From Rhodococcus globerulus NBRC 14531 (lineage in GTDB: Bacteria > Actinomycetota > Actinomycetes > Mycobacteriales > Mycobacteriaceae): DNA of 64,000 nucleotides. Numbering within the stretch: the stretch's first letter is position 1; every line of letters begins with the position of its first letter. The notes below the pieces were generated by a model, which ran no database searches, had not been told where the DNA came from, and worked only from the letters and a program-made list of their open reading frames with translations. Shown in pieces: positions 3,378 through 32,497 of this stretch. The stretch lies in assembly GCF_001894805.1 (NCBI RefSeq), contig NZ_BCWX01000001.1:1860001-1924000 (forward strand), written 5' to 3'. Position numbers and translations under genes: made by a program.

Positions 3378-3420
3378 GTTGCATGAACCTACCGCTGCGA
3401 CGAGCTTGTGCCCACGCATG

Positions 3421-3443: not shown

Positions 3444-3449
3444 GGTTTC

Positions 3450-13672: not shown

Positions 13673-13764
13673 TTGGTACGTACCTATAGCTGACGAATGT
13701 GGATCGCAAATTTGGCTTTGAGCTGCATATTTCAATTCAGACCGAAAATTCTTTGGTACGCACC
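13673..13764. promoter_or_regulatory. Repeated element TTGGTACGYACC, two copies 80 bases apart
   Basis: TTGGTACGTACC (13673-13684) and TTGGTACGCACC (13753-13764) differ at one base. The first contains the palindrome GGTACGTACC. The GGT-N4-ACC form resembles operators of HutC-type GntR regulators such as NagR (GGTCTAGACC), and a GntR/UTRA regulator is encoded in this cluster at 21929. Both copies lie in the 353-base gap upstream of the importer operon, which holds no gene. Confidence 0.45.
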
Positions 13765-13794: not shown

Positions 13795-13814
13795 TAAACC
13801 TGAACTTAGATTTA
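13795..13814. promoter_or_regulatory. Catabolic-cluster palindrome, copy 1 (importer operon)
   Basis: TAAACCTGAACTTAGATTTA is an imperfect 20-bp palindrome sharing 17 of 20 bases with the site at 27637-27656. It lies 104 bases before the substrate-binding protein start, inside an A+T-rich stretch. It is probably an operator of the TetR regulator at 26986. Confidence 0.6.
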
Positions 13815-13918
13815 TATCTGACGCGAAATGACTGCGTCCTGGCTGCCGGCTCGGATTGTCGGTGTGCCACAACCGCTTGCCCTGTTTCATCCCGTCCACC
13901 AACTGTCCTGGAGAACGA

Positions 13919-15181
13919 ATGAAGAACAAGCTCAAGGTCCTCGGTCCGACGCTAGTGATCGCACTTGCCATCGCCGGCTGCTCCTCGAAGGCGACCGACA
14001 ATGCCGACTCGGGAGAATCGGGCGGCGTGAAGGCAGGCGTCGGCGTGACGTCCGATGCCATCACCCTCGGTGCGCTGGTCCCTCTCAGTGGACCGATCGG
14101 CGGTCTTGGCCAGGACGGGGTTGCAGGCATCCAACTGTGGTTCGACAAGGTCAATGCCGGCGGTGGAGTCTGCGATCGTGAATTGCGGATCGAATCGCGT
14201 GACAACAAGTACAACTCGCAGGAGACGATGACGCAGTACACGTCGCTGCGGACGGATATCGCGGGAATTGTCAATCTGTCGCCGGGAACTGACGCGGTGA
14301 CGCTCGGGCCCAAGCTCGCTCAGGACGGACTCGCCGTATTGGCAGGTTCGTACGATCCGGTGCTCCTGACCGTGCCGCAGGCCTTCATGCCGGGGGCGCC
14401 GTACGACGTCGAAGCTGTCAACGGTGTTGCCTACCTCGTGGAGAAAGGGATCCTCAAGGAGGGCGACACGATCGGTGTCATCGCGTATCCCAACGGCATC
14501 GGTGTAGCGGTGACAAACGGGGTGGCCGGTGCAGCGCAACAGTTCGGTCTGAAGGTGGAGAACACAAAGATCGACAGCACGGCTACCGACGCGACCGCGC
14601 AGGTCAACACTTTGCGCCAGGCGGGTGCCAAGGCGATAGTCATGGGCACCGCGAGCGCACAAACCGTTTCGGCTGCTGCTGTCGCGAAGGCCGGCGGATA
14701 CGACGTCGTGATTCAAGCCACCAACTTGCTGTCAAGTGGCGACCTGGCGGGGCCGGCCCGTGATGCGCTTGTCGATCACGTTGTCCTGACCTCGAACAGT
14801 GCACCGTTCAGTTCTGATGCGGCGCCGGTCCAGGAACTTCTCGCCGCCTGGGAGGCCAAGTACGGCGACCGCGCGGCAACCGCACCTGCTGCCGCCGGGT
14901 ATCTGATGGCGCAACTGCTCGAAAAGGGCCTGAACCAGGCGTGTGAGGACAAGGATCTGACTCCGCAGGGCATCACCACAGCCATGAGCAAAGTGGGAGT
15001 AATCGACACCGACGGTCTCGCTGTCGACCTCGATTTCTCCAACCCAGGAACGGCGCCGTCGCTGGAGTCGTTCATTCTCGTGCCGGATCCGAATGCCAAG
15101 GGTGGAACCGTGATTGCGCAGACTCCCACCGCCAGCGCCGCTGCAGTGAAGTACGCCGCCGACAAGAGCTACACCAAGTGA
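13919..15181 (+). CDS. Substrate-binding lipoprotein of a branched-chain-amino-acid-type ABC importer
   Basis: A periplasmic-binding-fold type 1 protein (LivK/UrtA-like), 420 residues, that captures the ligand outside the membrane and delivers it to the permeases encoded downstream. A signal peptide with a lipobox (LAIAGC, Cys about residue 20) gives membrane anchoring. The mature part opens with ITLGALVPLSGPIGGLGQDG, the usual beta-strand of this family. ATG at 13919 follows GGAG; an upstream in-frame ATG at 13856 is not supported. Ligand unknown: the family carries amino acids, urea, amides and aromatic or short-chain carboxylates. The adjacent CoA ligases favour a carboxylic acid. First gene of an operon extending through the transporter. 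Confidence 0.9.
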   Translation: MKNKLKVLGPTLVIALAIAGCSSKATDNADSGESGGVKAGVGVTSDAITLGALVPLSGPIGGLGQDGVAGIQLWFDKVNAGGGVCDRELRIESRDNKYNSQETMTQYTSLRTDIAGIVNLSPGTDAVTLGPKLAQDGLAVLAGSYDPVLLTVPQAFMPGAPYDVEAVNGVAYLVEKGILKEGDTIGVIAYPNGIGVAVTNGVAGAAQQFGLKVENTKIDSTATDATAQVNTLRQAGAKAIVMGTASAQTVSAAAVAKAGGYDVVIQATNLLSSGDLAGPARDALVDHVVLTSNSAPFSSDAAPVQELLAAWEAKYGDRAATAPAAAGYLMAQLLEKGLNQACEDKDLTPQGITTAMSKVGVIDTDGLAVDLDFSNPGTAPSLESFILVPDPNAKGGTVIAQTPTASAAAVKYAADKSYTK

Positions 15182-15203
15182 GTGTAGGACGAGGAGGGCC
15201 ACG

Positions 15204-15977
15204 ATGATCGAAGTCGATTCCCTTGCAGTGAGTTACGGTTCTGCGAAGGTATTCCACGACGTGAACCTGCGCGTCGACGAGGGACAGATCGTTGCGCTGA
15301 TCGGGAATAACGGTGCGGGTAAAACGACACTCCTGCGGGCACTCTCGGGAATTCTCGGTGCCCAAGGCGGACAGGTGGTCGCCGGGACGGTGCGCGGCGA
15401 GGGTCTGGACCTCGATCGGAGCAATGCAGACAAGATCGTTCGACACGGCATCGTTCAGGTGCCTGAAGGGCGTCGAATCTTCGCGCAGCTGACGGTCCAG
15501 GAGAACCTCATGGCCGGCGCGTTGTCGGTGCGTTCGCGGTCCCGCGTGGCGGCCAGCCTGCGCCGGGTCCGCGAACTGTTTCCGATCCTCGTAGAGAGGG
15601 CCGGCCAAACCGCCGGCCTGCTGTCCGGTGGAGAGCAGCAGATGCTCGCAATCGGACGGGCGCTGATGAGTGAGCCGAAGGTATTACTGATGGATGAGCC
15701 GTCGTTGGGTCTGGCTCCTCTCGTCGCTCGGCAGATCATGGACACGATTACACAGGTGAATGCGGACGGGACGAGTGTCCTACTGGTTGAACAGAATACG
15801 AGGCTTGCACTCTCCGTCGCGCACCATGCGTACGTCCTCAACGGCGGTACCATGGCCGCGCAGGGGCCGGCCGCAGACCTGATCGATTCCGACATGCTCC
15901 TCGAGCTCACACTGGGTAAGACCACCGCCCACGGTTCCGCCGTGCTGACCAAGGCAGGGGGCCGGGGTGATGAGTGA
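15204..15977 (+). CDS. ABC importer ATPase, LivF type
   Basis: A cytoplasmic ATPase, 257 residues, that powers the importer. Walker A is GNNGAGKTT near residue 34, the signature is LLSGGEQQMLAIGRAL, Walker B is VLLMDEPSLGL, and the switch His is replaced in the LivF manner (LLVEQN). It starts 22 bases after the binding-protein stop with GAGGAGG before the ATG. It overlaps the next gene by 8 bases, so translation is coupled. Confidence 0.92.
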   Translation: MIEVDSLAVSYGSAKVFHDVNLRVDEGQIVALIGNNGAGKTTLLRALSGILGAQGGQVVAGTVRGEGLDLDRSNADKIVRHGIVQVPEGRRIFAQLTVQENLMAGALSVRSRSRVAASLRRVRELFPILVERAGQTAGLLSGGEQQMLAIGRALMSEPKVLLMDEPSLGLAPLVARQIMDTITQVNADGTSVLLVEQNTRLALSVAHHAYVLNGGTMAAQGPAADLIDSDMLLELTLGKTTAHGSAVLTKAGGRGDE

Positions 15978-16779
15978 AGTAGACGGAAACCTTCTCACGG
16001 CCGAGGGACTCACGGTTCGGTTCGGCGGCGTTCTTGCACTCGATGATGTCTCGTTTGCCATCCGGCGGGGCACGATTCATTCGTTGATCGGGCCGAACGG
16101 GGCCGGGAAATCGACGTGTTTCAACGCACTCACTGCGCTGTATCCCCTGGCGTCGGGCATGGTTCGTTTCGGTGACGTGCGGCTAGATACAGTGCCACAG
16201 CACCAGATCATCACCCACGGAATTGCCCGTACGTTCCAGAATCTGGTGCTCCCGCCGCATCTGACAGTGGCGGACACACTTCGTGTCGGTCGCCACCACC
16301 GCACGCGCACTGGGATGTTCGCCGCTGCGCTTGCTCTCCCGTCAGCGCGTCGTGAGAGGACTGAGGACGACGAAGTCGTTCGCACGATGGCGGAGGCGCT
16401 GGGAATCGAGAAGTACCTCGACCAGTCCGTGGGTCCGTTGCCTTACGGCATCCGAAAGAAGGTGGAGATCGCCCGCGCTTTGTGTGCGCAGCCGTCGCTG
16501 CTGTTACTCGACGAGCCTGTTGCCGGAATGAACGATGCCGAATCGTGGGCCCTGGGTGAGCAGATACTGGAATGCCGCGATCGCTTCGATCTGACCGTGC
16601 TTCTCGTCGAGCACGACATGGACTTGGTTCTCGGTCTCTCCGACCACATCACCGTATTGCAGTCCGGCAGGGTAATTGCCGACGCCGCACCTGAAGTGGT
16701 GCAACGAGATCCCGCTGTCATCGCCGCATACCTCGGTAGTGAGGCGCCGTTCGAAGTCGAGAGGACTTCTCGTGGATAG
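15970..16779 (+). CDS. ABC importer ATPase, LivG type
   Basis: The second ATPase, 269 residues. Walker A is GPNGAGKST, the signature is the LivG variant LPYGIRKKVEIARAL, Walker B is LLLLDEPVAGM and the switch region is LLVEHDMDLVLGLSD. The ATG at 15970 overlaps the end of the LivF gene; a GTG three bases upstream is possible. It overlaps the following permease by 8 bases. It pairs with LivF as a heterodimer under the two permeases. Confidence 0.92.
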   Translation: MSEVDGNLLTAEGLTVRFGGVLALDDVSFAIRRGTIHSLIGPNGAGKSTCFNALTALYPLASGMVRFGDVRLDTVPQHQIITHGIARTFQNLVLPPHLTVADTLRVGRHHRTRTGMFAAALALPSARRERTEDDEVVRTMAEALGIEKYLDQSVGPLPYGIRKKVEIARALCAQPSLLLLDEPVAGMNDAESWALGEQILECRDRFDLTVLLVEHDMDLVLGLSDHITVLQSGRVIADAAPEVVQRDPAVIAAYLGSEAPFEVERTSRG

Positions 16780-17662
16780 TTTCTTGAATGCCTTGGCCGG
16801 TGGGGTCTCACTCGGCGCGCTGTATGCCGTGATGGCCCTAGGATTCGTGGTCATCTACCGAGCCACCGGGATCCTCAATTTCGCCCACGGCGGGTTCCTG
16901 CTCTCCGGCGTTTTCGTGGCGGCACTCGTCAGCGAATCGCATGGATATCTGGTCGGTGTCCTAGCCGGGTTGGCGGTGGGAGCGCTGGTCGCGATCGTCA
17001 CCGACGTCGTTTTCATTCGTCAATCACGAACACAGGACCACGTAACTCTGACGATTCTTACTCTCGGCGTGAATTTGCTGATCGTCACCGAAGTCAGCCG
17101 TCGTCTCGGAGCGGAAACGTGGCCACTGAATGATCCGGTCGGGGATCGCATCGTCGAGTTCGGGATGATTACGATGCCTGCGTCCCGGCTCATTGCGCTC
17201 GGCGTTGCGGTAGCTGCGATCGCGGTGTTTCTGCTCTTGTTCCGCTTTACCAACTGGGGGCTGGCAATGCGGGTGAGCAACCAGGATGCGGAGGTTGCCA
17301 AGTTGATGGGCGTGCGTTTGTCGCGTGTCTCGTGGACGAGCTGGGCGATTGGTGGTGCACTGGCCGTTCTCGCAGGGTTGTTCCTTGCGTCCTTCCCGGC
17401 TGCAGGTGTTGCACCGTCCTTGGCGGACACAGCATTTCGCGCTTTCCCGGCTGCCGTTATCGGCGGTCTGGGATCGGTCACCGGCGCGCTGGTCGGCGGA
17501 TTGATGCTCGGCCTGACGGAGGCGTTTGCGGCAACCTACGAGAGTTCTTTGGGCGGGTGGGCGCACAACCTTTCGGGTATCAGCGCCTGGATTCTTCTGC
17601 TGGTCGTCCTGCTGGTGCGTTCCGAGGGGCTGTTCAGCACAAAGCAGGTGGCCCGTGTCTAG
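16772..17662 (+). CDS. ABC importer permease, LivH type
   Basis: An inner membrane permease of 296 residues with about eight hydrophobic segments. The family hallmark LGALYAVMALGFVVIYRATG is at the N-terminus, and FAHGGFLLSGVF and GGLGSVTGALVGG mark the LivH fold. GTG at 16772 lies inside the end of the LivG gene after a GAGAGGA-like site. The longer open frame that starts at 16676 runs inside LivG and is discarded. It overlaps LivM by 8 bases. Confidence 0.9.
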   Translation: MDSFLNALAGGVSLGALYAVMALGFVVIYRATGILNFAHGGFLLSGVFVAALVSESHGYLVGVLAGLAVGALVAIVTDVVFIRQSRTQDHVTLTILTLGVNLLIVTEVSRRLGAETWPLNDPVGDRIVEFGMITMPASRLIALGVAVAAIAVFLLLFRFTNWGLAMRVSNQDAEVAKLMGVRLSRVSWTSWAIGGALAVLAGLFLASFPAAGVAPSLADTAFRAFPAAVIGGLGSVTGALVGGLMLGLTEAFAATYESSLGGWAHNLSGISAWILLLVVLLVRSEGLFSTKQVARV

Positions 17663-18785
17663 AGGACGTTTCCTCGTGGTGGGTCTTGTGGTCGCACTGG
17701 TCATCGCGCCGTACTTCGTCGGCGAGTTCTGGTTGCAACTAGGCGGTTTGGCGATGGCGGCAGCGATCGCTGCGATGGGTTTGGCGATGCTCGTGGGCGT
17801 GGCGGGGCAGATTTCGTTGGCGCATGCGGTCTTCGTCGGTATCGGCGCCTACGGGTACGTCACATTGGCGAGCCCACCCGGTGACAATGTCTGGGGCCTG
17901 GGTTTGCCGCCTGCGGTCGCAGCCGTCGGGGCAGTGCTCACCGCGGGGATCGGGGGCCTGCTGCTCAGCCCGTTGTCGAGTCGGGTAACCGGACTCTATC
18001 TGGCGGTCGTCACCATCGGGCTTGTGTTCATCTGGGTTCACTTTCTCAACGAGGTCGAACAATTGAGCGGTGGCTACATCGGCAGAGCTGTCCCGGAATT
18101 CGAGATCCTCGGCGTGAATTTCGGTGACAGCGAACCGTGGAATGTGCTCGGTGTGCCCTTCGGCGCGGTGGAGAAACTGTGGTTGCTCGGAATCGCACTC
18201 GTAGCAGTTGCGTACATTGCGGCTCGCAGAATTGTTCAGGCCAGGCCCGGCCTGGCTCTGTCCATGGTGCGTGAGAGCGAAGTGGCGGCCTCGGCGATGG
18301 GTGTCAACGTAGGCCGGAACAAGGCTGCGGCATTCTTCGTCGCCTCCGTATACGCCGGTATTGCGGGTGTCCTTCTTGCAGTGACGATTCAGTTCATCAC
18401 TCCACAGGCGTTCGGGTTCCTGCTGTCGACCGATTACCTGGTCATCATCATCATCGGTGGTCTCGGCAGCCTGCGCGGCGCCATTGCCGGCGCGGTGTTC
18501 GTCACCGCACTGCCGCGGGTGCTCGGGCAGTTCGCCGGCAACATTCCCTTTCTCGTGCCAGTAGGACAAGGCGGCATCGACGCAAACGTCATGAGCGTTT
18601 TTGTCTACTGCGGTCTACTGATTCTCGTGATCATGTTTGCCCGCGGTGGGCTCGATCGAGTTCTCGGATGGCTGCTCGGACCGACGCACCGCGCGGGCTC
18701 CAGACCCGGGCCGAAGCAAGAACTCGCGCCGCCGCCTGAGCCTGACCCGACGCCCGAACCACACCAGGAGAAGGAGACCGTCTGA
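17655..18785 (+). CDS. ABC importer permease, LivM type
   Basis: The second permease, 376 residues, with about nine to ten hydrophobic segments. The family motif GQISLAHAVFVGIGAYGYV is near residue 55, and GLGSLRGAIAGAVFV is near 275. The C-terminus has an unusual charged Pro/Glu tail of about 30 residues (APPPEPDPTPEPHQEKE) that should lie in the cytoplasm. GTG at 17655 overlaps the LivH stop. Its stop shares a base with the start of the first CoA ligase (TGATG), tying the importer to the activating enzyme. Confidence 0.9.
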   Translation: MSRGRFLVVGLVVALVIAPYFVGEFWLQLGGLAMAAAIAAMGLAMLVGVAGQISLAHAVFVGIGAYGYVTLASPPGDNVWGLGLPPAVAAVGAVLTAGIGGLLLSPLSSRVTGLYLAVVTIGLVFIWVHFLNEVEQLSGGYIGRAVPEFEILGVNFGDSEPWNVLGVPFGAVEKLWLLGIALVAVAYIAARRIVQARPGLALSMVRESEVAASAMGVNVGRNKAAAFFVASVYAGIAGVLLAVTIQFITPQAFGFLLSTDYLVIIIIGGLGSLRGAIAGAVFVTALPRVLGQFAGNIPFLVPVGQGGIDANVMSVFVYCGLLILVIMFARGGLDRVLGWLLGPTHRAGSRPGPKQELAPPPEPDPTPEPHQEKETV

Positions 18786-20311
18786 TGTACACCTGGCTGC
18801 ATGTCCTTGACTGGCGTGCCACATCCGATCCGGACGCGCTGGCCGTGAGCGACGATCGGGAGCAGTTGACCTACCGACAGTTTCGAGCCCGCGTCGAGCG
18901 CACTGCTGCGCAGTGGTGGGCACGCGGCATTCGGCCGGACGACGTTGTGGCGGTGATCGCACGCAACAGCGCCGAATTTCTGGTTCAGACATTGGGTCTC
19001 ATGAGACTCGGAGCGCTGCCGTTGCTCGTGAACTGGCGAATGACTGCGCACGAAATCGATCGTTTGCTCGATACTGCCACGCCCGCAGGTATTTTCGTCG
19101 ACCAGGCCTATCAGTCCGTCATGGAGAACCGAGACGATCTCGTCCGTGTGGTTTCAGGAGCGAAGAGTGAGGGCTGGACGGGAGCGGATTGCTGCGGCGA
19201 ACCACCGGCGCCGTATCCACGGGATCGGTTGCGTGCCGATCAGGCGGCGTTCCTCATGCACAGTAGTGGAACCACCGGTCTGCCCAAGATCATCCCGCTC
19301 GATCACGGCGCCCTCATCCGGGGGCTCGCGGGGTTCGCGATCGACATCGGCGACCAGCAGCGAGGCAGTCGCCACCTGGTGATGATGCCGCTGTTCCACC
19401 TCGCAGGGTTCGCCCAGGCGATGCAGTGCTTCCTCACCGGAGGAACGCTCTTCATTCACGACGGTGTCGACATCGACCGCGTCATCGACGTGATCGGGCG
19501 CGAGCGGATCAACTTCTTCACCGCCGCCCCGACTATCGTCGAGATGCTCGTTGACACGATGGAGCGGACCACACAGGACGCAGATCTGTCGAGCCTGCTC
19601 GAAGTGCAGTACGGCGCTGCCCCGATCGAATCGGAGCTGCTCGAGAGGGCGCTTCGTGTGATCTGCCGACGGTTCCGACAAATCTACGGCAGCACCGAAC
19701 TCCAGGGTTTCCTGTCGGTCCTGCGACCGGAGGATCATGTCCCGGGGAGCGCTCGGCTCGCTACCGCGGGCCAGATCTCGCAGGGATGGGAGGCGCGGAT
19801 CGTCGATCCCGCCGGGAACGCGCAACCGACGGGCGCACCCGGCGAGTTGTGGGTTCGTAGCGAGAATGTCATCCGCGAGTACTGGCGAAATCCCGTCGAG
19901 ACCGAAGCAGCCTTCACCAGTGACGGCTGGTACCGGACGGGCGACATGGCAGTGCTCGACGAGGACAACTTCCTCCGGATCGTCGGACGTTCGAAAGACA
20001 TGATCATCAGCGGCGGCGAGAACGTGTACCCCGCCGAAATCGAGCGGGCACTGCTCGACCACCCGGCAGTTGTCGACGTCGCAGTCGTTGCACGGCCGCA
20101 TCCGAAGTGGGGTGAGACCCCGGTGGCGTTCGTCGTGTGCGCAGCGGGTGTCGTCCCGGATGTCGGCGAACTGGACAGCCATTGCCGAGAACGGCTGGCG
20201 GGGTTCAAGTGTCCGTCCTCGATCCAACACATCACAGAGCTGCCGCGCAATGCTCTGGGCAAGGTGCGCAAAGTCGAACTGCGCGAGCGCCTGGTAGCCG
20301 GTTCCGCCTGA
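18785..20311 (+). CDS. Acyl-CoA ligase (ANL superfamily), first copy
   Basis: It is predicted to activate a carboxylate to its CoA thioester with ATP. The 508 residues are complete: P-loop MHSSGTTGLPK near 159, YGSTE aromatic/adenine motif, YRTGDMA, hinge GRSKDMIISGGENVYPAE, and the catalytic Lys in LPRNALGKVRK at the C-terminus. Start and stop overlap with LivM (TGATG) imply translational coupling, so the substrate is probably what the importer brings in. Specificity cannot be read from sequence; the family includes fatty, short-chain and aromatic acid ligases. A second ligase follows 39 bases later and is clearly diverged, so this is not a recent duplication. Confidence 0.9.
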   Translation: MYTWLHVLDWRATSDPDALAVSDDREQLTYRQFRARVERTAAQWWARGIRPDDVVAVIARNSAEFLVQTLGLMRLGALPLLVNWRMTAHEIDRLLDTATPAGIFVDQAYQSVMENRDDLVRVVSGAKSEGWTGADCCGEPPAPYPRDRLRADQAAFLMHSSGTTGLPKIIPLDHGALIRGLAGFAIDIGDQQRGSRHLVMMPLFHLAGFAQAMQCFLTGGTLFIHDGVDIDRVIDVIGRERINFFTAAPTIVEMLVDTMERTTQDADLSSLLEVQYGAAPIESELLERALRVICRRFRQIYGSTELQGFLSVLRPEDHVPGSARLATAGQISQGWEARIVDPAGNAQPTGAPGELWVRSENVIREYWRNPVETEAAFTSDGWYRTGDMAVLDEDNFLRIVGRSKDMIISGGENVYPAEIERALLDHPAVVDVAVVARPHPKWGETPVAFVVCAAGVVPDVGELDSHCRERLAGFKCPSSIQHITELPRNALGKVRKVELRERLVAGSA

Positions 20312-20350
20312 ACGGCCCTTCAGCTTCGCGTACAAGAGGACGAGGAGAAC

Positions 20351-21901
20351 ATGGATCATCATTATTCAATCGGACGAATGCTCGAGTACTGGTCACAGGA
20401 AAGGCCCGATTCACTTGGTATTGCCGTCGAAGGTGTTGCCGCACATACCTTTGGCGAGTGGTATCGGCACAGCAGTCGGCTCGCCAACGGCTTCGCTGTT
20501 TTGGTGCCTGATAGTGCCACCATCCGTGGCGTCGGTTTTGCGGGAAAGAGTGCAGTGTCGTGGGGAGTGGTGCTTGCTGCAGCTTCCTTGGTGAAAGCCA
20601 CTGCTACGCCACTTAATTGGCGGCTGAGCCGCCGGGAGATGCAAGAGATAGTCGCGGATGCGAACCTGGATGCGATCGTGGTCGAGGCAGAATTTATGCC
20701 GCAGTTCGGATATCCGGTACCGGAGGACGGCCGTACCCGCCTACTCGTCCCGGATGCACAGCCACAGGATTTCGAGAATTGGCTGGCGCAGTTTTCCGAG
20801 GAGCCTGTGACACCCGCCGCCGGCCCGGACGATATCGCGCTCATGGTTTATACGTCGGGAACATCCGGTCGGCCCAAGGGTGTGCAGCTGTCCAACCGGG
20901 CGATCGCTGCCAATCTTGCGTCCAACCCACCCTGGCAGATCCACCCGGGAGACGTTGTCATGGTTCCGGCGCCGAACTTCCATATTTCCGGCACCGGTTG
21001 GATCTTCTACTGTCTCGGGCTTGGCGCCGGTTCGCACCACGTTCTCGACGTCCGTCCGGAGTTGGTGCTGCCCGTCCTGGCCGGGGGCGCTGTCAACCAC
21101 GCTTTGACAGTGCCCGCCGTGGTGCAGATGTTGGTCGAGCACGAGAGTGCGCGCCGCTCGACGTACCCGGAGTTGCGGACCCTGATCTATGGCGGTTCGC
21201 CGATGTCGCCCACCGTTGCCTCGGTTGCGCAGGACGTCTTCGGCTGTGACCTCATGCAAGCCTATGGAATGACCGAAACTTGCGGTCCGATAACGATTCT
21301 CGATGCAGAGGATCATCGCGGCGGCGGCCTGCTGCTCGCGTCGGCCGGTCGGCCTGTGCGCGGCGTCGAAATGGGTGTCTTCGACCCTGTCACGGGGGAA
21401 CGGGTATCGGTGGGTGCGACCGGCGAGGTGTGGACACGCAGCGAGATGCTGTTGACGGGATACCACAACCAGCCGGATGAACTAGCCGCAGTGCTCAGTG
21501 GCGACGGTTGGTTCCGGACTGGAGACGCGGGCTACCTCGACGAAGACGGGTATCTGTTTCTCTGCGACCGGGTCAAGGACATGATTGTCTCCGGCGGGGA
21601 GAACGTGTATCCGGTGGAAGTGGAGAACGTGCTCATGGCGCATCCCGCTGTGCGCGACGCCGCCGTGATCGCAGTGCCGCACGAGCGTTGGGGTGAGACG
21701 GTGAAAGCCGTGATTGTGCCCACCCGCGAGGGCCTGGATGTGAGCGACGTGATCTCCTACTGCCGGCAGCATCTGGCGCACTACAAGTGCCCCACGTCGG
21801 TTGACATCGTGGCCGAACTACCGCGAAACCCCAGTGGCAAGCTTCTCAAACGTGAGCTGCGCAGGCCCTATTGGGCGCAACATGAGCGGGGGATCGCATG
21901 A
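20351..21901 (+). CDS. Acyl-CoA ligase (ANL superfamily), second copy
   Basis: A second AMP-forming ligase, 516 residues, with an intact P-loop MVYTSGTSGRPKG, YGMTETCGP, FRTGDAG, the hinge DRVKDMIVSGGENVYP and catalytic Lys (PRNPSGKLLK). AGGAGA lies 5 bases before the ATG. It differs throughout from the first ligase outside the motifs, so it probably takes a different substrate or a downstream intermediate of the pathway. It is in the same strand run as the importer and the GntR gene 27 bases on. Confidence 0.9.
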   Translation: MDHHYSIGRMLEYWSQERPDSLGIAVEGVAAHTFGEWYRHSSRLANGFAVLVPDSATIRGVGFAGKSAVSWGVVLAAASLVKATATPLNWRLSRREMQEIVADANLDAIVVEAEFMPQFGYPVPEDGRTRLLVPDAQPQDFENWLAQFSEEPVTPAAGPDDIALMVYTSGTSGRPKGVQLSNRAIAANLASNPPWQIHPGDVVMVPAPNFHISGTGWIFYCLGLGAGSHHVLDVRPELVLPVLAGGAVNHALTVPAVVQMLVEHESARRSTYPELRTLIYGGSPMSPTVASVAQDVFGCDLMQAYGMTETCGPITILDAEDHRGGGLLLASAGRPVRGVEMGVFDPVTGERVSVGATGEVWTRSEMLLTGYHNQPDELAAVLSGDGWFRTGDAGYLDEDGYLFLCDRVKDMIVSGGENVYPVEVENVLMAHPAVRDAAVIAVPHERWGETVKAVIVPTREGLDVSDVISYCRQHLAHYKCPTSVDIVAELPRNPSGKLLKRELRRPYWAQHERGIA

Positions 21902-21928
21902 ATCCCCACGACCGGGAGGAAAAGATAA

Positions 21929-22654
21929 GTGGTAGCTCGGTATGAGGAGGTAGCGCGTTCACTCGCCCGACGGATCGAGGACGGGTCGTATCCGGTGGGC
22001 TCGAAGCTGCCGACGGAGATAAGCCTCGCCGACAGCTACGCAGTGTCCCGAGCCACGGTCCGTTCGGCGTTGGGTTCCCTGGAGAGCTTGGGCATGGTGT
22101 CGCGGCGACGCAAGATCGGGACAACGGTGGAATCCATCCAGCCCACCGGCGGATATTCGCGCACCGTCACGAACATGAACGATTTGCTGCAGTACTCGGT
22201 CGAGACTCGACGGCTGGTGCTGACTCGAGACGGCGTGGTTGCCGATCAGCTGTTGGCTGAGCAGATCGGCGGCCATGCCGGTGATCGGTGGGCGCGCATC
22301 CGGATGTTGCGCCTCGGTGATCTCGGTGAAGAGAGCCCGGTGTGCCACACGGACGTGTACCTCGATCCTGACGTCGCCGCTACCGTCGGAGACCGCCTCG
22401 AACGCCCGGACGGTCTCATCAACGAGATCGTCGAGCGGTGTACCGGGCGCCTGACCGATCGCGTCGAGCAGCGAATCCGTGCGTGCGCCTTGCCGAACGA
22501 CCTTGCCGATCTATTGCGTGCCGAGGCGGGTTCGCCCTGCCTCGAAATCACCCGCAGATATGTAGAGAGCTCGGGGGCGGTAGCCCAGGTGACGGTGTCG
22601 ATACACCCGGGCGATCGATTCGACTTCAACGTGTCGATGCAGCGGCGTCGTTGA
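21929..22654 (+). CDS. GntR-family regulator, HutC/UTRA type
   Basis: A 241-residue repressor. The N-terminal winged helix-turn-helix (about 1-70) shows SKLPTEISLADSYAVSRATV and RSALGSLESLGMVSRRR; the rest is a UTRA ligand-binding domain (HTDVYLDPDVAATVG, LEITRRYVESSG). Start is GTG at 21929 after GGAGGAAAA. It lies inside the catabolic operon, so it probably senses a pathway metabolite. The repeated GGT-N4-ACC element at 13673-13764 has the shape of a HutC-type operator and is a reasonable target. Confidence 0.9.
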   Translation: MVARYEEVARSLARRIEDGSYPVGSKLPTEISLADSYAVSRATVRSALGSLESLGMVSRRRKIGTTVESIQPTGGYSRTVTNMNDLLQYSVETRRLVLTRDGVVADQLLAEQIGGHAGDRWARIRMLRLGDLGEESPVCHTDVYLDPDVAATVGDRLERPDGLINEIVERCTGRLTDRVEQRIRACALPNDLADLLRAEAGSPCLEITRRYVESSGAVAQVTVSIHPGDRFDFNVSMQRRR

Positions 22655-22687
22655 GAACAGCTAGCTCAGAACAGCTATGGAGGAAAA

Positions 22688-23854
22688 TTGAGGATCACCG
22701 AGATCCGCGAGCTTGATGTGCCGCTGGTCGGCGCCATCTCGAACGCGGTTGTCAGCTTCGATCGGCACAAGGTGTCCCTTGTCGCCGTTGTCACCGACAT
22801 AATTCGGAACGGGCGTCCGTTGGTGGGTGTTGCCTTCAACTCGATCGGGAGGCACTCGCAGGGCGGTATTCTGCGCGAACGGATGATTCCGCGGGTCCTC
22901 GAGGCAGACCCGGACACTCTGCTGTCGCCGACCACCGGGTTGCTGGATCCTGCTCGGGTTCTGAAGGTCGCCCGCACAGACGAGAAGCCAGGAGGTCACG
23001 GAGACCGCGCGGCGGCGGCGAGTGCGATCGAACTGGCGGTGTGGGACGTGCTCGCCAAGTACCACGATGAACCGGTTTACCAGACGATCGCGCGAGCATA
23101 CGGCCGGACGCCGCTGGCTTCGGGTGCGCCGGTCTACGCCGCCGGAGGTTACTACCAGGACATCGACGACCTGGGGAGATTGCGAGCTGAGATCGCCGGT
23201 TACCGGGCTGCCGGATACTCGGCCGTCAAGATCAAGATCGGTGGGGTCGAACTCGGCGAGGATCTGCGCCGGATCGATGCTGCCATCGAGGTCACCGGGA
23301 GCGGACGACATCTGGCGGTCGATGCAAACGGTCGTTTCGACCGTGACCAAGCCTTGAAATACGCCGAGGCGCTCGCCCCCTATGGTCTGCGCTGGTACGA
23401 GGAGGCGGTCGATCCGCTCGATTACGCCCTGTGCAGCGATCTGTGCGAGGTCTACGACGGCGTGATCGCGACTGGCGAGAACCTTTTTTCCACACAAGAC
23501 GTCGGTAACCTCCTCCGATTCGGTGGTCTACGACCGGATCGCGACATCCTCCAGATGGATGCGGGACTGAGTTACGGCCTGACCGAGTACGCGGAAATGA
23601 TTGCGCTGATGGAACACCGGGGCTTCGATCGAACGGCCGCAATGCCCCACGGTGGGCACCTGATGAATCTGCATATCGTCGTCGGGTTGGGTTTGGGCGG
23701 TTGCGAAGCGTATCCGGGTGTCTTCCAACCGTTCGGCGGTTACAGCGACGATTGTGTCCTGGCCGACGGACTGATTCGACCCGCGGACAACCCCGGGTTC
23801 GGGTTGGAGGCGAAGTCGGGTCTGGCCGAGAGAATCGTGGAGTTGGTGACATGA
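22688..23854 (+). CDS. Enolase-superfamily dehydratase resembling D-tartrate dehydratase
   Basis: A 388-residue member of the mandelate racemase/enolase superfamily. It resembles the Bradyrhizobium D-tartrate dehydratase (TarD) along its whole length: SLVAVVTDIIRNGRP, FNSIGRHSQGGILRER, NEKPGGHG-like TDEKPGGHG, the KxK base pair in AVKIKIGG near residue 178, the metal ligands VDANGR, EEAVDPLDY and TGENLF, and the catalytic His in MPHGGHLMNLHI. It should abstract the alpha proton of a sugar or hydroxy acid and eliminate water to a 2-keto acid. Start is TTG at 22688, with GGAGG 5 bases before it. It overlaps the next gene by 4 bases (ATGA). The exact substrate is inferred only. Confidence 0.85.
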   Translation: MRITEIRELDVPLVGAISNAVVSFDRHKVSLVAVVTDIIRNGRPLVGVAFNSIGRHSQGGILRERMIPRVLEADPDTLLSPTTGLLDPARVLKVARTDEKPGGHGDRAAAASAIELAVWDVLAKYHDEPVYQTIARAYGRTPLASGAPVYAAGGYYQDIDDLGRLRAEIAGYRAAGYSAVKIKIGGVELGEDLRRIDAAIEVTGSGRHLAVDANGRFDRDQALKYAEALAPYGLRWYEEAVDPLDYALCSDLCEVYDGVIATGENLFSTQDVGNLLRFGGLRPDRDILQMDAGLSYGLTEYAEMIALMEHRGFDRTAAMPHGGHLMNLHIVVGLGLGGCEAYPGVFQPFGGYSDDCVLADGLIRPADNPGFGLEAKSGLAERIVELVT

Positions 23855-24786
23855 ACCAATCTCTGAAGATTGCAGTAGTAGGTTGCGGCGCAATGGGTTC
23901 CGTGTACGCAGGCCGCTTGTCTGGGGCCGGCCACGACGTGCTGGTGGTGGACCGCTGGGGAGATCACGTTCAGGCCATCTCAACCTCGGGTCTGCGAATT
24001 TCAGGTCCGGACGGGGAACGTGTGGTGCCTGTGCGCGCTTTCCTGACGATCCCGAACGAGTCGGTTGATCTCGTCGTACTCGCTGTCAAGGCCGCCGACG
24101 TCGCCGGCGCCGCCGCCTCCCTCGGGATGTTGATCGGTGACGACACCGTGGTGCTCACGATTCAGAACGGATTGGGATCGGCGGACGAGGTCGCTCGGCA
24201 CATCGGCGCAGACCGACTGGCTGTGGGCATTGCAAGCGGTTTCGGCGCGTCGCTGATCGCTCCTGGCCGGGTGAATCACAACGCGATGAGGGCGATGCGA
24301 TTCGGTGCTTACGAAGATCTCTCGTTCGAGGCCGTCGACAGGGTTGCCGGTGCGTGGCGGACAGCGGGATTCGACGCGCTGGCTGTGGCCGACATCGCAG
24401 CGATGCAGTGGGAGAAGCTGATCTGCAATGTCGCATACAGTGCGCCGTGTGCGCTCACCGGTCTCACCGTGGGCGATGTGCTCGATCACGAGCACATGGG
24501 TCCGGTCAGCCGGGCCGCCGCGACGGAGACCTGGGAGATAGCCAGGGCCCGCGATATCGCGATCGATGTGGCAGACCCGGTCGCTTTCGTACGGGATTTC
24601 GGTGCGGCGATGCCCGCAGCAAAACCGTCGGCGCTACTCGATCACGAAGCCGGGCGGGTCAGTGAGATCGGATCGATCAACGGCGCTGTTCCCCGAGAAG
24701 CCGCAAAGGTGGGGCGGCTTGCGCCGGTCAATGCGACGCTGACGGCACTGGTCCGAACCCGTGAAGCCGGATTCGGGGTTCGATAG
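23851..24786 (+). CDS. Ketopantoate-reductase-like (ApbA/PanE) oxidoreductase
   Basis: An NADPH-dependent 2-keto acid reductase of 311 residues. The Rossmann motif is VVGCGAMGSVYAGRLSGAGH, followed by VLAVKAADV and TIQNGLGS, and the C-terminal helical domain holds the catalytic Lys (MQWEKLICNVAYSA). ATG at 23851 overlaps the dehydratase stop, so both are translated together. In a pantothenate context it would reduce 2-dehydropantoate. Here, after a dehydratase that yields a 2-keto acid, it more likely reduces or oxidises that product. It ends at a strong hairpin shared with the convergent LeuC-like gene. Confidence 0.85.
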   Translation: MNQSLKIAVVGCGAMGSVYAGRLSGAGHDVLVVDRWGDHVQAISTSGLRISGPDGERVVPVRAFLTIPNESVDLVVLAVKAADVAGAAASLGMLIGDDTVVLTIQNGLGSADEVARHIGADRLAVGIASGFGASLIAPGRVNHNAMRAMRFGAYEDLSFEAVDRVAGAWRTAGFDALAVADIAAMQWEKLICNVAYSAPCALTGLTVGDVLDHEHMGPVSRAAATETWEIARARDIAIDVADPVAFVRDFGAAMPAAKPSALLDHEAGRVSEIGSINGAVPREAAKVGRLAPVNATLTALVRTREAGFGVR

Positions 24787-24828
24787 GCAGACGGAGCCGA
24801 GTGTTGCGACCGGCTCGGTGGTTAAACC

Positions 24829-24865
24829 GGCCGGCTCAGTGGTCCCCAGGACCGCTGAGCCGGCC
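24829..24865. terminator. Bidirectional terminator between the PanE-like and LeuC-like genes
   Basis: GGCCGGCTCAG (24829-24839) and CTGAGCCGGCC (24855-24865) pair perfectly, with inner GGTCC/GGACC extending the stem. The last codons and stop of the minus-strand LeuC-like gene (24836) lie inside it. There is no T-run. Confidence 0.6.
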
Positions 24866-26236
24866 GCGCACTGCCGTCATCGCCGCTACTGCAGGCGATA
24901 CCAGGTGAGTCCGCGCCCCAGGGCCTTGGCGACCCTCGAAATTCCGATTGGTCGTCGATGCCGAACGTTGTCCGGGACCAAGTGCATCCGGGTTCATGGC
25001 AGTGCACATCGAACACCCGGCGGAACGCCACGCAAATCCGGCCTGAGTGAAGATCCGGTCGAGGCCCTCAGCCTCGGCCGCCGCCGCAACGGCTCGTGAA
25101 CCGGGAACGACGAGGGCCCGGACGCCGGGAGCAACGGTGCGGCCTGTGAGAACCTGGGCTGCCGCACGTAAGTCTTCGAGCCGACCGTTGGTACACGATC
25201 CGATGAAAACAGTGTCAATTGTTATGTCGCGCATAGGCGTTCCTGGCTCGAGGGCCATGTAGGAAAGGGCGCGTGTCGCCGCTTCGCGCTCGGCGGGATC
25301 GCTGTAGTCGTCGGGGGATGGGACAAAGCCGTCCAGCGAGACCGAGTGACTGGGGATGGTGCCCCAGGTGACCGTGGGGGAGACGTCGGAGGCGGACAAT
25401 TCGTGCGTGTAGTCGAAGAGGGCGCCGTCGTCCGTCTGCAAGGTTTGCCAGTAGGTGAGCGCCTGGTTCCACAAAGCGCCTGTCGGAGCGTGCTTGCGGC
25501 CGCGCAGATAAGCAAAGGTCACGTCGTCGGGGGCAACCAGGCCGCCGCGTGCGCCGCATTCGATAGTCATGTTGCACAAGGTCATTCGCTGTTCCATGCT
25601 GAGCGAACGAATCGCGCTTCCGCGGTATTCGATGACGCTTCCGGCGCCGCCGTTGGGACCTAGAGTGCGAACGACGTACAGGGCGAGGTCTTTTGCGCTC
25701 ACGCTGGTGTCGAGATGGCCGTCGACGCATACCTGCATCGAATTCGGCTTCTCCATGCGGAGTGTTTGTGTTGCCATGACGTGCTCGACCTGACTCGTTC
25801 CGATCCCGAATGCAAGTGCGCCGAACGCTCCGTGGGTGGAGGTGTGCGAATCGCCGCACACGATTGTCAGGCCGGGCTGCGTCAAGCCCTGCTCGGGTCC
25901 GATGACGTGAACGATGCCGTTGCCGGCTGAGTCCATGGGGTTGTGTGGCACACCGAAGGCCGCGCAGTTGCGGCGAACCAACTCCAATTGCAGTCGGCTC
26001 ATCGGATCCGAGATGGGAGACCCAGCTCCGGTGGTAGGTACGTTGTGGTCCTCCGTCGCCATGGTCAGATCCGGCCGACGGACTGGACGGCCCGCGGCCC
26101 GGAGTCCCTCGAAGGCTTGCGGAGACGTCATTTCGTGAAGCAAGTGCAGGTCGACGTAGAGCAGGTCGGGGCCGGTTTCGCCGCGAACCACAACGTGCTC
26201 GTCCCAGAGCTTGTCGAACAGGGTACGCGGCGCCAC
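24836..26236 (-). CDS. Aconitase-family dehydratase large subunit, LeuC-like
   Basis: A 466-residue [4Fe-4S] hydro-lyase subunit of the isopropylmalate isomerase type. It has the N-terminal [32 protein letters not shown] and [14 protein letters not shown] with the first cluster Cys, and [10 protein letters not shown] with the other two. The usual partner LeuD (small swivel subunit) is not encoded next to it or anywhere in the window, although leuC and leuD are normally adjacent. It may use a LeuD from elsewhere or act on a different hydroxy diacid. The upstream VOC gene lies 34 bases away on the same strand, so the two probably form an operon controlled by the palindrome at 26859-26882. Confidence 0.88.
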
Positions 26237-26270
26237 GGCCCGTCCTTCCGGTATTCAGTCAGTGCTGGCT

Positions 26271-26837
26271 CTAGTCGTTGACGGATACGGGCTTACGGCG
26301 GTCCGCTCCAGTTCGCGGAGTGTGTGAGACGTCGTGCGGACCGAAGGCACGCATCCAGCATGCGAACTCGAGGAGTATGCCGTCGGGGTCCTGGAAGTAG
26401 AACGAGCGGACGTACACGCCGTCGTGCATCTCGGTCGCGATCTGGGAAGGGCTGTCGTCGTGATTCACGAGAGGGCCTACCCGGACACCTGATTCCTTCA
26501 GCTTCTGGCGATAGTCCTGGAACTTCTCCGGTGGGACATCGAACGCGATGTGATTGAGCGAACTCACAGCGCTCGTCCATTCGCCGAAGCCGGGCTTCTC
26601 GACCGGCGCGGAAATGCCTGGCACGCCGTCGGGAGCGTCGGTGAACCAGAAGAACGCTAGTGAGTTCCCGTTGCCGACGTCGAAGAAGAAATGTTGTCCG
26701 ATGCCGTCGGGAAGATCGACGGTCTTTACGAGCGGAAAGCCGAGGATGTTGGTGTAGAAGTCCACCGTCCTTTCCATATCCGAGCAGACGAGCGCGACAT
26801 GGTTGAAGCCGCGGACTTCGAAACGGGGCGAGTTCAT
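26271..26837 (-). CDS. VOC superfamily protein, extradiol-dioxygenase/glyoxalase type
   Basis: A 188-residue vicinal-oxygen-chelate protein with two beta-alpha-beta-beta-beta modules. Probable metal ligands are His in GFNHVALV, His in LNHIAFDV and Glu in GILLEFACW, the His-His-Glu set of Fe or Mn dioxygenases. It could cleave or isomerise an activated hydroxy or keto compound. ATG at 26837 is preferred because GGAAGG lies 7 bases upstream; an ATG two codons earlier (26843) abuts that site. It is divergent from the TetR gene, and a palindrome lies between them. It leads into the LeuC-like gene. Confidence 0.83.
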   Translation of the reverse strand: MNSPRFEVRGFNHVALVCSDMERTVDFYTNILGFPLVKTVDLPDGIGQHFFFDVGNGNSLAFFWFTDAPDGVPGISAPVEKPGFGEWTSAVSSLNHIAFDVPPEKFQDYRQKLKESGVRVGPLVNHDDSPSQIATEMHDGVYVRSFYFQDPDGILLEFACWMRAFGPHDVSHTPRTGADRRKPVSVND

Positions 26838-26858
26838 GGGCATCCCTTCCAGAGTGAA

Positions 26859-26882
26859 AATCTGACTCTAACATCAGATTCA
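26859..26882. promoter_or_regulatory. Catabolic-cluster palindrome, copy 2 (VOC/TetR gap)
   Basis: AATCTGA (26859-26865) and TCAGATT (26874-26880) form a perfect inverted repeat. A second register, 26863-26882, aligns with 13 of 20 bases of the site at 27637-27656, including TCT(A/G)A...CAGATT. It lies between the divergent VOC and TetR starts, where an autoregulating TetR protein would bind. Confidence 0.55.
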
Positions 26883-26985
26883 TATGCGGACAATGGTCGT
26901 GCAGTGAGCAGAGGGCGCAGCCTTAACGTGCTTCTGGTGTAGAAAGACGGCTGGAGATCCAAGGCTGCCGTGAAAGGGTGCGCAC

Positions 26986-27603
26986 ATGACTGGTCCTGAG
27001 AAGGCGCGACCGACAAAGCGTGGCCGCGAGACGTTGGAAGCGATCGATGCGGCTGCACGAAAGGTGATCGCGAAGAAAGGCTTCCTCAAGATGCGCGTGG
27101 CTGACATTCTCGCGGAAGCCGGAAGATCGCCGGCCTCGTTCTACAACTACTACGAATCCAAGGAGGCGTTGCTCGAGAGTTGGGCACGTCAGTTCCAGGT
27201 GGATGCGCGTGTGCGTGCGCAGGCCAATCGGAAGCTGGTCGGCCGCGAACCGAGGCAGCGTGTAGAGGCTTCAGCCAGGGCCCACTGGGAGACATACCGA
27301 GAGCGACTTGCGGAGATGGTGGGGGTCTTTCAGCTCGCCATGGTCAACGACGACTTCGCTCGGGTCTGGGACGAGCTCTGTGACGAAGCTATTTCCGGTA
27401 TTGCCGAGGAAGTCGTCATCGCGCAGGAACGGGGATACTGCCCTGGCGTCGATCCACGTCTCACCGCCACGGCGATTGTGGGGATGTTGAACATGTTCAG
27501 TTACGAGAAGCTGGCTAACGGGGGCGCCGCAGGCGTAGATGACGAGGCATGCATCGCCACGTTGACCGAGATCTGGTTCCGGGCCGTGTATTGGCGCGAG
27601 TGA
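26986..27603 (+). CDS. TetR-family transcriptional regulator of the catabolic cluster
   Basis: A 205-residue regulator. The helix-turn-helix is at about residues 15-60 (ETLEAIDAAARKVIAKKG, then ADILAEAGRSPASFYNYYES), and the rest is a helical ligand-binding domain. It is transcribed divergently from the VOC/LeuC-like pair and lies 69 bases before the hydrolase gene. Related palindromes stand on both sides of it and upstream of the importer operon 13 kb away, so it is the best candidate for a local master repressor. The ligand may be a CoA ester or acid of the pathway; that is inference. Confidence 0.9.
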   Translation: MTGPEKARPTKRGRETLEAIDAAARKVIAKKGFLKMRVADILAEAGRSPASFYNYYESKEALLESWARQFQVDARVRAQANRKLVGREPRQRVEASARAHWETYRERLAEMVGVFQLAMVNDDFARVWDELCDEAISGIAEEVVIAQERGYCPGVDPRLTATAIVGMLNMFSYEKLANGGAAGVDDEACIATLTEIWFRAVYWRE

Positions 27604-27636
27604 GAGGTATGGACTTATGGCTCGGCGCCGTGATAC

Positions 27637-27656
27637 TAAATCTGAACCCAGATTTA
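27637..27656. promoter_or_regulatory. Catabolic-cluster palindrome, copy 3 (hydrolase promoter)
   Basis: TAAATCTGAACCCAGATTTA has perfect 8-bp arms around a 4-base centre. It is the best copy of the element also found at 13795-13814 (17 of 20 identical). It stands 16 bases before the hydrolase GTG, overlapping the expected promoter or leader. Confidence 0.65.
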
Positions 27657-28859: not shown

Positions 28860-28876
28860 CCCCCATCTCCAAGTCG

Positions 28877-29104
28877 CCAACCGCGTTCGCGCCACTCCTG
28901 CAAGTGCGGACGCTCGGCGCCGAGTGTCGTGTCCTTGCCGTGGCCGGGGTAGACGATGGCGGAGTCGTCGTAGCGTCCGAAGAGCTTGGTCTCGACATCG
29001 CTGAGCAGTGAGGTGAATTTCTCGGGATCAGCGGTCTTACCCACTCCGCCTGGGAAGAGCGAGTCGCCGGTGAAAACGTGAACCTGGCCTGACAGTTCGG
29101 TGAG
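28877..29104 (-). pseudogene. Truncated copy of the metallo-beta-lactamase gene (3' fragment)
   Basis: This 228-base stretch matches 31633-31860, the 3' third of the intact metallo-beta-lactamase gene, with about three substitutions. It retains the FTGDSLFPGGVGKT and YPGHGKDTTLGAERPH motifs but lacks the HxHxDH metal site. The match starts one base after the intact gene's stop codon, so the copied frame reads on to about 28795, and at its 5' side it is joined to unrelated sequence, giving a chimeric open frame 28795-29209. It cannot be a working hydrolase. It is a non-functional duplication remnant. Confidence 0.85.
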
Positions 29105-31616: not shown

Positions 31617-31629
31617 TGCGGTGCAAGGG

Positions 31630-32402: not shown

Positions 32403-32497
32403 GGCGTCGTTCGAGGACTCGCTGCGTTTGAGTGCTCGAGATGTCGGTGATGTCGCTGGTGGACAGCCCTAGATGAATGACGATGAAGGGAATTGGT

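What the first reader, a model, noticed from the sequence alone, without database searches (positions are those of the whole stretch)
13795..27656. Three related palindromes tie the importer, VOC/TetR and hydrolase genes into one regulon
TAAACCTGAACTTAGATTTA (13795-13814) and TAAATCTGAACCCAGATTTA (27637-27656) share 17 of 20 bases, and 26859-26882 carries a looser copy (TCTAACATCAGATT register, plus a perfect AATCTGA/TCAGATT pair). They lie upstream of the importer, in the divergent VOC/TetR gap and upstream of the hydrolase. The TetR gene at 26986 lies between the second and third. A 14-kb block would be under one repressor.
Basis: partly seen in the sequence, partly recalled or inferred. Interest (0 to 1): 0.72.

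Follow-up and report, generated by a model that had tools for sequence, protein, structure and literature searches.

The report
One TetR repressor's three-operator catabolic regulon
Three copies of one short DNA palindrome, kept across related bacteria beside the same repressor gene, mark the promoters of a 15-kb block of predicted uptake and breakdown genes in a Rhodococcus, which that one repressor would likely switch off together.

Summary
All three sites fit one 20-bp register (13795-13814, 26863-26882, 27637-27656), consensus TRAAYCT-N6-AGRTTYA. A matrix trained only on mycobacterial sites ranks exactly these three first in the 64-kb window (22.0, 21.1, 20.5; next 11.3). In the 6.7-Mb genome one other place fits within one mismatch, inside a predicted reading frame. 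The operator follows this TetR subfamily: 22 of 26 further TetR matches from a 397-genome search carry it 56-99 bp upstream; the four without it form a separate paralogue group. The seven mycobacterial/Mycolicibacter loci read hold no match to the block's GntR, so TetR is the likely reader. Hydrolase and importer operators are conserved within Rhodococcus. In Tomitella and a Gordonia-group genome the operator sits before importers of another family. In three other Gordonia-group genomes CoA-ligase, enolase-superfamily and ApbA genes lie behind the operator that precedes VOC. Best reading: a repressor of acid uptake and catabolism, released by a pathway metabolite. Substrate, inducer and DNA binding are untested. 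The mycobacterial orthologue appears to be Rv0273c (EtbR), described in print as an inhA repressor.

The parts
13795..13814 (+). operator O1 TAAACCTGAACTTAGATTTA, upstream of the importer operon
   Evidence: PWM score 20.5; 19 of 20 columns identical in 3 Rhodococcus genomes
26863..26882 (+). operator O2 TGACTCTAACATCAGATTCA in the divergent VOC/TetR gap (mycobacterial form TGAATCTAACATCAGATTCA, with outer symmetric bases)
   Evidence: PWM score 21.1; conserved upstream of TetR in 22 of 26 homologues; outer dyad
27637..27656 (+). operator O3 TAAATCTGAACCCAGATTTA, 16 bp before the hydrolase start codon
   Evidence: PWM score 22.0; 19 of 20 columns identical in 4 genomes
26986..27603 (+). TetR-family repressor (TetR_N, EthR_C)
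26271..26843 (-). VOC (glyoxalase/extradiol-like) protein with invariant H15, H98, E159
24836..26236 (-). LeuC-like aconitase-family large subunit without a LeuD beside it
27673..28794 (+). alpha/beta hydrolase, predicted esterase-like fold
13919..15181 (+). substrate-binding protein of a LIV-type importer (Peripla_BP_6)
15204..15977 (+). ABC ATPase 1 of the importer
15967..16779 (+). ABC ATPase 2 of the importer (BCA_ABC_TP_C)
16676..17662 (+). LIV-type permease 1 (ORF bounds; start uncertain)
17526..18785 (+). LIV-type permease 2 (ORF bounds; start uncertain)
18785..20311 (+). acyl-CoA ligase 1
20351..21901 (+). acyl-CoA ligase 2
21929..22654 (+). GntR/UTRA regulator (possible second layer of control)
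22688..23854 (+). enolase-superfamily dehydratase, close relative of Bll6730
23848..24786 (+). ApbA/PanE-like 2-oxoacid reductase

Best explanation
The three palindromes are copies of one operator that is likely bound by the TetR protein encoded at 26986-27603, which would repress its own promoter and the VOC, hydrolase and importer promoters together. Shown here: the sites share one register and fit one consensus; the operator accompanies this TetR subfamily in Rhodococcus, mycobacteria, Tomitella, Gordonia-group genomes and Desertimonas; and in relatives the same enzyme genes, or importers of another family, lie behind the same operator. Inferred: a TetR dimer sits at the downstream edge of the -10 region of the importer and hydrolase promoters, and over the VOC promoter, so it blocks RNA polymerase; a substrate or acyl-CoA intermediate of the pathway releases it; the block then imports an organic acid or ester (LIV-type importer), cleaves it (hydrolase), activates it (two CoA ligases) and handles a hydroxy-diacid-like part (Bll6730-like dehydratase, ApbA, LeuC-like, VOC). 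The substrate is a guess; the regulatory wiring is the firm part.
For: A matrix trained only on mycobacterial TetR-gap sites ranks the three sites 1-3 in the window. Genome scan: 3 of 4 places within one mismatch. 22 of 26 further TetR matches in the order search have the site 56-99 bp upstream; the 4 without are a paralogue group, and the 2 of them aligned read FYHYFESKE where the operator-bearing proteins read FYNYYxSKE or close to it. Among Rhodococcus/Prescottella the operators keep 18-19 of 20 columns, more than any of the 15 flanking blocks except a tie at 18. The seven mycobacterial/Mycolicibacter loci (8.7-20.6 kb each) show no GntR match. Tomitella: sites in the TetR gap (19.5, 13.5), before the hydrolase (17.3) and before an SBP_bac_5 importer (17.4; next in the locus 5.1), the last 30 bp after a TTGACA start, as at the Rhodococcus importers after TTGACT/A. 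G846: SBP_bac_5 importer behind a site of score 21.8. G862 and G825: VOC-CoA ligase 2-MLE-ApbA run from the divergent gap, G862 and probably G825 with CoA ligase 1 further on; G819: VOC-hydrolase-CoA ligase-MLE-ApbA behind a site of 19.5. Published: deleting the VOC gene MSMEG_0608 raised MSMEG_0604-0606 (section 3.4 read), as expected if VOC consumes the inducer.
Against: No binding or expression data. One of 60 simulated windows held a site scoring just above the weakest of the three. The promoter scanner did not call the -35/-10 pairs; they were read by eye. The gap sites of G862 and G825 score only 12.8, close to the next-best 12.1 in the same stretches, and their hydrolase sites 15.8 and 14.3. 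In G819 tetR and VOC point the same way and the site lies between them, with none seen upstream of tetR. G036 C25 and G820 have no site near tetR (best 12.6 and 10.4, about 1.3 kb away), and in G846 the tetR-gap site is imperfect. In 5 of the 7 mycobacterial/Mycolicibacter genomes the reversed control pattern also found one place. Prescottella's importer promoter could not be read: the contig starts just before CoA ligase 1 and no SBP relative at E <= 1e-40 was found elsewhere. Print: under isoniazid in wild-type M. smegmatis the VOC gene rose while the TetR gene fell, which simple co-repression does not predict; and the mycobacterial orthologue is assigned inhA as target.
Confidence: 0.8

Rival explanations
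1. The GntR/UTRA protein encoded inside the importer operon (21929-22654), not TetR, reads these palindromes; TetR controls only the VOC gap.
For: The GntR gene lies in the block. GGTACGTACC (13675) and GGTACGCACC (13755) upstream of the importer have counterparts one or two bases different in G015 and G021, so the importer promoter may have a second regulator.
Against: The operator occurs beside TetR in mycobacterial loci that show no GntR match. The GntR-like dyads are a different sequence, and no exact GGTNCGYACC lies at the other two operators; one match with a mismatch lies at 26977 just before tetR, in a pattern that is not significant by number.
Confidence: 0.07
2. The TetR is mainly a regulator of inhA or drug tolerance, as printed for Rv0273c/EtbR, and the local sites are autoregulatory only.
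For: A review and PMC12695796 cite Zhu et al. 2018 for EtbR repressing inhA (passages and one section read).
Against: In 7 mycobacterial and Mycolicibacter genomes, several of them drafts, the only places within one mismatch are the VOC/TetR gap plus one place in G034 that was not examined; inhA itself was not located. In Rhodococcus, Tomitella and Gordonia-group genomes further operators lie before hydrolase or importer genes.
Confidence: 0.06
3. The three palindromes resemble each other by chance or through A+T-rich promoter composition.
For: The sites are A+T-rich; one simulated window reached the score of the weakest site.
Against: Independent training set, genome counts, cross-genus conservation and the paralogue negative control.
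Confidence: 0.02

Closest known systems
Rv0273c/EtbR (MSMEG_0606) TetR regulator with divergent glyoxalase Rv0274 (MSMEG_0608)
   Same: Same layout as the mycobacterial loci read here: VOC divergent from TetR (print). PMC4482099 Table 2 lists a palindromic MEME motif for Rv0273c with E 1.2e-43 (passage read; the logo letters are not held).
   Different: No M. tuberculosis or M. smegmatis sequence was compared here, so orthology rests on layout and on 50-57% identity to other mycobacterial TetRs. Print describes inhA as its target; the passages read describe no importer or catabolic regulon.
EthR (PDB 1t56)
   Same: TetR family with the C-terminal Pfam domain EthR_C, here barely above its cut-off; PDB match over residues 3-203 at 31.7 bits, second to 6el2 at 45.6 bits.
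   Different: Weak similarity; EthR's motif is described as larger and more complex than a simple palindrome (PMC4482099 passage).
KstR/KstR2/BkaR-type catabolic repressors
   Same: TetR repressors with palindromic operators (PMC4482099 passage); that they control catabolic gene blocks is recalled.
   Different: Different gene content; operator letters and membership were not compared.

Membership tests
TetR family of transcriptional repressors | TetR_N helix-turn-helix domain at the N terminus | tested here: met
   PF00440 at 43 bits, cut-off 24
TetR family of transcriptional repressors | Palindromic operator at its own, usually divergent, promoter | tested here: met
   O2 at 26863-26882; 22 of 26 homologues likewise
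TetR family of transcriptional repressors | Binds the operator and is released by a small ligand | not testable with these tools
   Needs gel shift and ligand screen
EtbR/Rv0273c orthologue group | TetR divergent from a VOC gene, hydrolase downstream | tested here: met
   VOC-TetR-ABH order in L012-L016 and L019 (ABH cut by the contig end in L016); L011 has VOC-TetR but no ABH match; Rv0273c/Rv0274 layout from print, the hydrolase as Rv0272c from recall
EtbR/Rv0273c orthologue group | Represses inhA | not tested
   inhA was not located; for the places found
EthR | EthR_C ligand-binding domain | tested here: met
   PF21313 at 28.0 bits, cut-off 27
EthR | Larger multi-copy operator (print) beside an EthA monooxygenase (recalled) | tested here: not met
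   The divergent neighbour is a VOC gene and the shared operator a 20-bp dyad
D-tartrate dehydratase (enolase superfamily) | Full-length homology and active-site motifs of Bll6730 | tested here: met
   393 bits over residues 2-382; KxK, DAN, YEE, TGEN and PHGGH kept; the motif roles and the identity Bll6730 = D-tartrate dehydratase are recalled; PMC10079672 passages name a D-tartrate dehydratase from B. japonicum
D-tartrate dehydratase (enolase superfamily) | Activity on D-tartrate | not testable with these tools
   Needs an enzyme assay

The most novel reading that the evidence does not exclude
A conserved actinobacterial TetR-VOC-hydrolase module, discussed in mycobacteria as an inhA/drug-tolerance regulator, is a portable uptake-and-catabolism switch: its operator has been placed before importers of two different families (LIV-type in Rhodococcus, Opp-type in Tomitella and a Gordonia-group genome), and the VOC enzyme consumes the inducer, closing a feedback loop that would explain the published rise of the TetR operon in a VOC deletion.
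Probability: 0.38. Interest if true: 0.62.

Novelty: new member of a known kind. Interest (0 to 1): 0.48.

Why it matters
It gives a repressor discussed mainly in a drug-tolerance setting a concrete, testable operator and a natural gene set, and it offers a way to find its inducer: the substrates of the importer, hydrolase and VOC enzyme of a Rhodococcus. It also shows one operator placed before importers of different families, a clean case of regulon assembly around a conserved core.

Tried and rejected
TetR relatives on plasmids at E <= 1e-30: none; hydrolase relatives: 3 records at 43-47%. Phylum-wide draw: 6 of 396 genomes, the own one included, all in the window's family and all already in the order draw. 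LeuD partner for the orphan LeuC: one LeuD above the cut-off in the genome, on another contig, plus one weak match below it. Hydrolase structure: esterase-like fold, no specific substrate. GGTNCGYACC in the window with one mismatch: 52 matches against 38.6 expected, reached by 6 of 100 shuffles. Paper searches for Rv0272c, Rv0273c, Rv0274, MSMEG_0606/0608 and fadE6, and for Rhodococcus with TetR and D-tartrate: the listings name no paper on this regulon. Passages were read in PMC4482099, PMC9480834, PMC6868718, PMC10079672 and PMC10034137, passages and one section in PMC12695796; no paper was read whole. Zhu et al. 2018 is not held (looked up by a recalled DOI). 'EtbR' as a search word gave 5,343 papers; the 20 listed are unrelated uses.

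Rows dropped before counts: of 43 loci (L021-L051) matched only the DNA-binding part or distant relatives and were not used. Of 6 Gordonia-group matches, 2 lack an operator near tetR. The 29 training sites held 6 unique sequences and only those entered the matrix. Of the 4 operator-less paralogues 2 were aligned. The permease-2 query (reused) was translated in a wrong frame and held stops; its identities are not used, and permease 2 is named.
Full report
WHAT IS THERE. The window lies in a 6.73-Mb genome, G000 C1:1860001-1924000; the closest named TetR relative, 97% identical, is in Rhodococcus sp. ARC_M6. The three palindromes are present: O1 13795-13814 TAAACCTGAACTTAGATTTA; O2 26863-26882 TGACTCTAACATCAGATTCA; O3 27637-27656 TAAATCTGAACCCAGATTTA. 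O1 and O3 share 17 of 20 bases.

CHANCE. TAAAYCTGAACYYAGATTTA with up to 3 mismatches: 3 matches at 2 places, none in 100 shuffles. Genome-wide, the O3 sequence with up to 3 mismatches finds only O3 and O1. TRAATCTNNNNNNAGATTYA with up to 1 mismatch finds 4 places in G000, three of them O1-O3; the reversed control finds 0. The fourth, C4:514840, starts 28 bases inside a predicted reading frame. A looser pattern with up to 3 mismatches is mostly noise: 162 forward and 174 reverse matches against 91 and 91 for the control. Since those patterns were drawn partly from the sites themselves, I made an independent test: a matrix from mycobacterial and Mycolicibacter TetR-gap sites only (29 sites, 6 unique; arms only) ranks O3, O2 and O1 first, second and third in the 64 kb at 22.0, 21.1 and 20.5; the fourth scores 11.3. 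In 60 first-order Markov windows the best score averaged 13.7 with a maximum of 20.6, so one site at 20.5 can arise by chance, but three together are not plausible by chance. In 28 same-genus genomes the pattern has 4 places in G000, 2 each in G015 and G021 (the two others with a close TetR), and 5 places in 4 of the remaining 25; reversed control 0.

WHO READS IT. The order-level search found TetR matches at E <= 1e-40 in 23 of 397 genomes, the own one included, giving 26 loci besides the own. In 22 of these 26 the best upstream match has 0-2 mismatches to TGAATCTNNNNNNAGATTYA and begins 56-99 bp before the aligned start; in the other 4 the best has 6-7 (reversed control 3-7 over the 26). Those 4 are second copies in genomes whose other copy has the operator, and share a different N-terminal sequence; the two aligned (L112, L113) read FYHYFESKE where the operator-bearing proteins read FYNYYxSKE or close to it. 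In 26 unique mycobacterial 32-mers the dyad extends outwards, with symmetric bases at offsets -1 (25 of 26) and -3 (26 of 26), less so at -2 (13) and -4 (16). Among the 12 loci L009-L020 from named genomes a site lies upstream of TetR in all 12, more diverged in Desertimonas (18.9) and Gordonia L018 (15.8). The seven mycobacterial and Mycolicibacter loci among them show no match to the block's GntR protein, so the operator goes with TetR.

THE BLOCK. O1: 104 bp before the SBP start of the importer operon: SBP, two ATPases, two permeases (LIV type), two acyl-CoA ligases, GntR, enolase-superfamily enzyme, ApbA. O2: between VOC-LeuC (minus strand) and TetR. O3: 16 bp before the hydrolase start. 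Operon limits are inferred from direction and short gaps. Gene order is kept in G015, G021 (L009 is the same genome as G021) and, as far as its contig goes, in Prescottella defluvii. In footprints, 19 of 20 columns of O1 (3 genomes), 19 of 20 of O3 (4) and 18 of 20 of O2 (4) are identical, against 0-9 of 20 in 10 of the 15 flanking blocks; the other 5 are the two blocks just upstream of O1 (18 and 13), which hold the promoter, and the one before and two after O3 (14, 17, 17), the last two reaching into the gene.

RELATIVES WITH OTHER GENE SETS. Tomitella biformata (L020): sites at 9862 (19.5) and 9933 (13.5) in the TetR gap, 10644 (17.3) before the hydrolase and 12935 (17.4) before an SBP_bac_5 gene, with a permease, an ATPase and a CoA ligase downstream; next score in the locus 5.1. 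This importer is of another family than the Rhodococcus one (PF00496 versus PF13458). At the importers of G000, G015, G021 and Tomitella a TTGAC motif starts 30 bp before the operator (read by eye; the scanner did not call it in the window). In the genus of G036 (59 genomes, 6 with a match): G862 carries VOC-CoA ligase 2-MLE-ApbA-CoA ligase 1 in one direction from the TetR gap and G825 the same as far as ApbA in the stretch compared, with gap sites of 12.8 (next-best 12.1 in the same stretches) and sites of 15.8 and 14.3 before the hydrolase. In G819 tetR and VOC point the same way; a site of 19.5 lies between them, before VOC-hydrolase-CoA ligase-MLE-ApbA, and none was seen upstream of tetR. 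G846 has an imperfect site at tetR and a 21.8 site before an SBP_bac_5 importer. G820 and G036 C25 have none near tetR. Desertimonas (L017) has TetR divergent from a CoA ligase, with a hydrolase, a VOC protein and two importer-like ATPases within about 10 kb, and a single operator.

MECHANISM (INFERRED). O1 and O3 begin a few bases after a plausible -10 and would cover the transcription start; O2 lies over the VOC promoter region. A bound TetR dimer would block polymerase. The ligand is unknown. In M. smegmatis, deleting the VOC gene MSMEG_0608 raised MSMEG_0604-0606 (PMC12695796, section 3.4 read). The authors read this as VOC regulating TetR; accumulation of an inducer that VOC normally removes would give the same result, and so might a local effect of the deletion, which the authors argue against (passage). 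The same section reports that under isoniazid in wild type the VOC gene rose while the TetR gene fell, which simple co-repression does not predict. VOC keeps H15, H98 and E159 in all ten aligned sequences, a metal-site-like set (recalled), which suggests an enzyme. The enolase-superfamily protein matches Bll6730 (2dw7) with 393 bits and keeps its active-site motifs; Bll6730 as D-tartrate dehydratase is recalled, and PMC10079672 names a D-tartrate dehydratase from B. japonicum (passages). The hydrolase model (mean pLDDT 88.4) matches monoglyceride lipases and feruloyl/chlorogenic esterases at 10-16% identity, TM mostly 0.4-0.5 by query and 0.5-0.7 by target length in the 50 listed. A hydroxy-acid ester is a fair guess for the substrate, no more.

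PRINT. PMC4482099 (passages) lists Rv0273c with a palindromic motif of E 1.2e-43; the logo is not held, so I cannot say that it equals this operator, though it probably does. PMC9480834 and PMC12695796 (passages and one section) cite EtbR as an inhA repressor. In 7 mycobacterial and Mycolicibacter genomes the operator occurs within one mismatch only in the VOC/TetR gap, plus one unexamined place in G034; the reversed control found one place in 5 of the 7. I did not locate inhA. The listings name no paper on a three-operator regulon.

VERDICT. Novelty lies in the regulon's content, the operator's presence before importers of different families, and the contrast with the printed role of the mycobacterial orthologue.

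Noticed in passing
window 13675-13684 and 13755-13764: Two GT-N4-AC dyads (GGTACGTACC, GGTACGCACC) 80 bp apart upstream of the importer promoter, with counterparts one or two bases different in G015 and G021; candidate sites for the GntR/UTRA protein of the operon.
   Followed up: partly
window 28873-29104 and 31629-31860: A 232-nt direct repeat (98%): a partial copy of the metallo-beta-lactamase-fold gene on one side and the gene itself on the other flank a phospholipase-D-like gene (29656-31098). In G015 and G021 the MBL gene lies less than 100 bp from the hydrolase and the PLD query had no match, so the PLD gene looks inserted here.
   Followed up: partly
window 24836-26236: A full-length LeuC without LeuD beside it; the genome has one LeuD above the cut-off, on another contig.
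   Followed up: partly
window 3408-35458: The block lies between uvrB (3408-5612) and uvrA (32477-35458); the FAD monooxygenase (11148) and DUF5996 (12627) genes beside the importer had no match at the same place in G015 and G021.
   Followed up: partly
L123 3387 and L125 163: Two Gordonia-group homologues without the operator near tetR share a different palindrome-like sequence (TGAAAATGAACACAGTTTYG) about 1.3 kb upstream of TetR.
   Followed up: no
mycobacterial TetR-gap loci: The operator has further symmetric bases outside the 20-bp core (offsets -1 and -3), so half-sites overlap 6 bp apart and two dimers might bind.
   Followed up: partly
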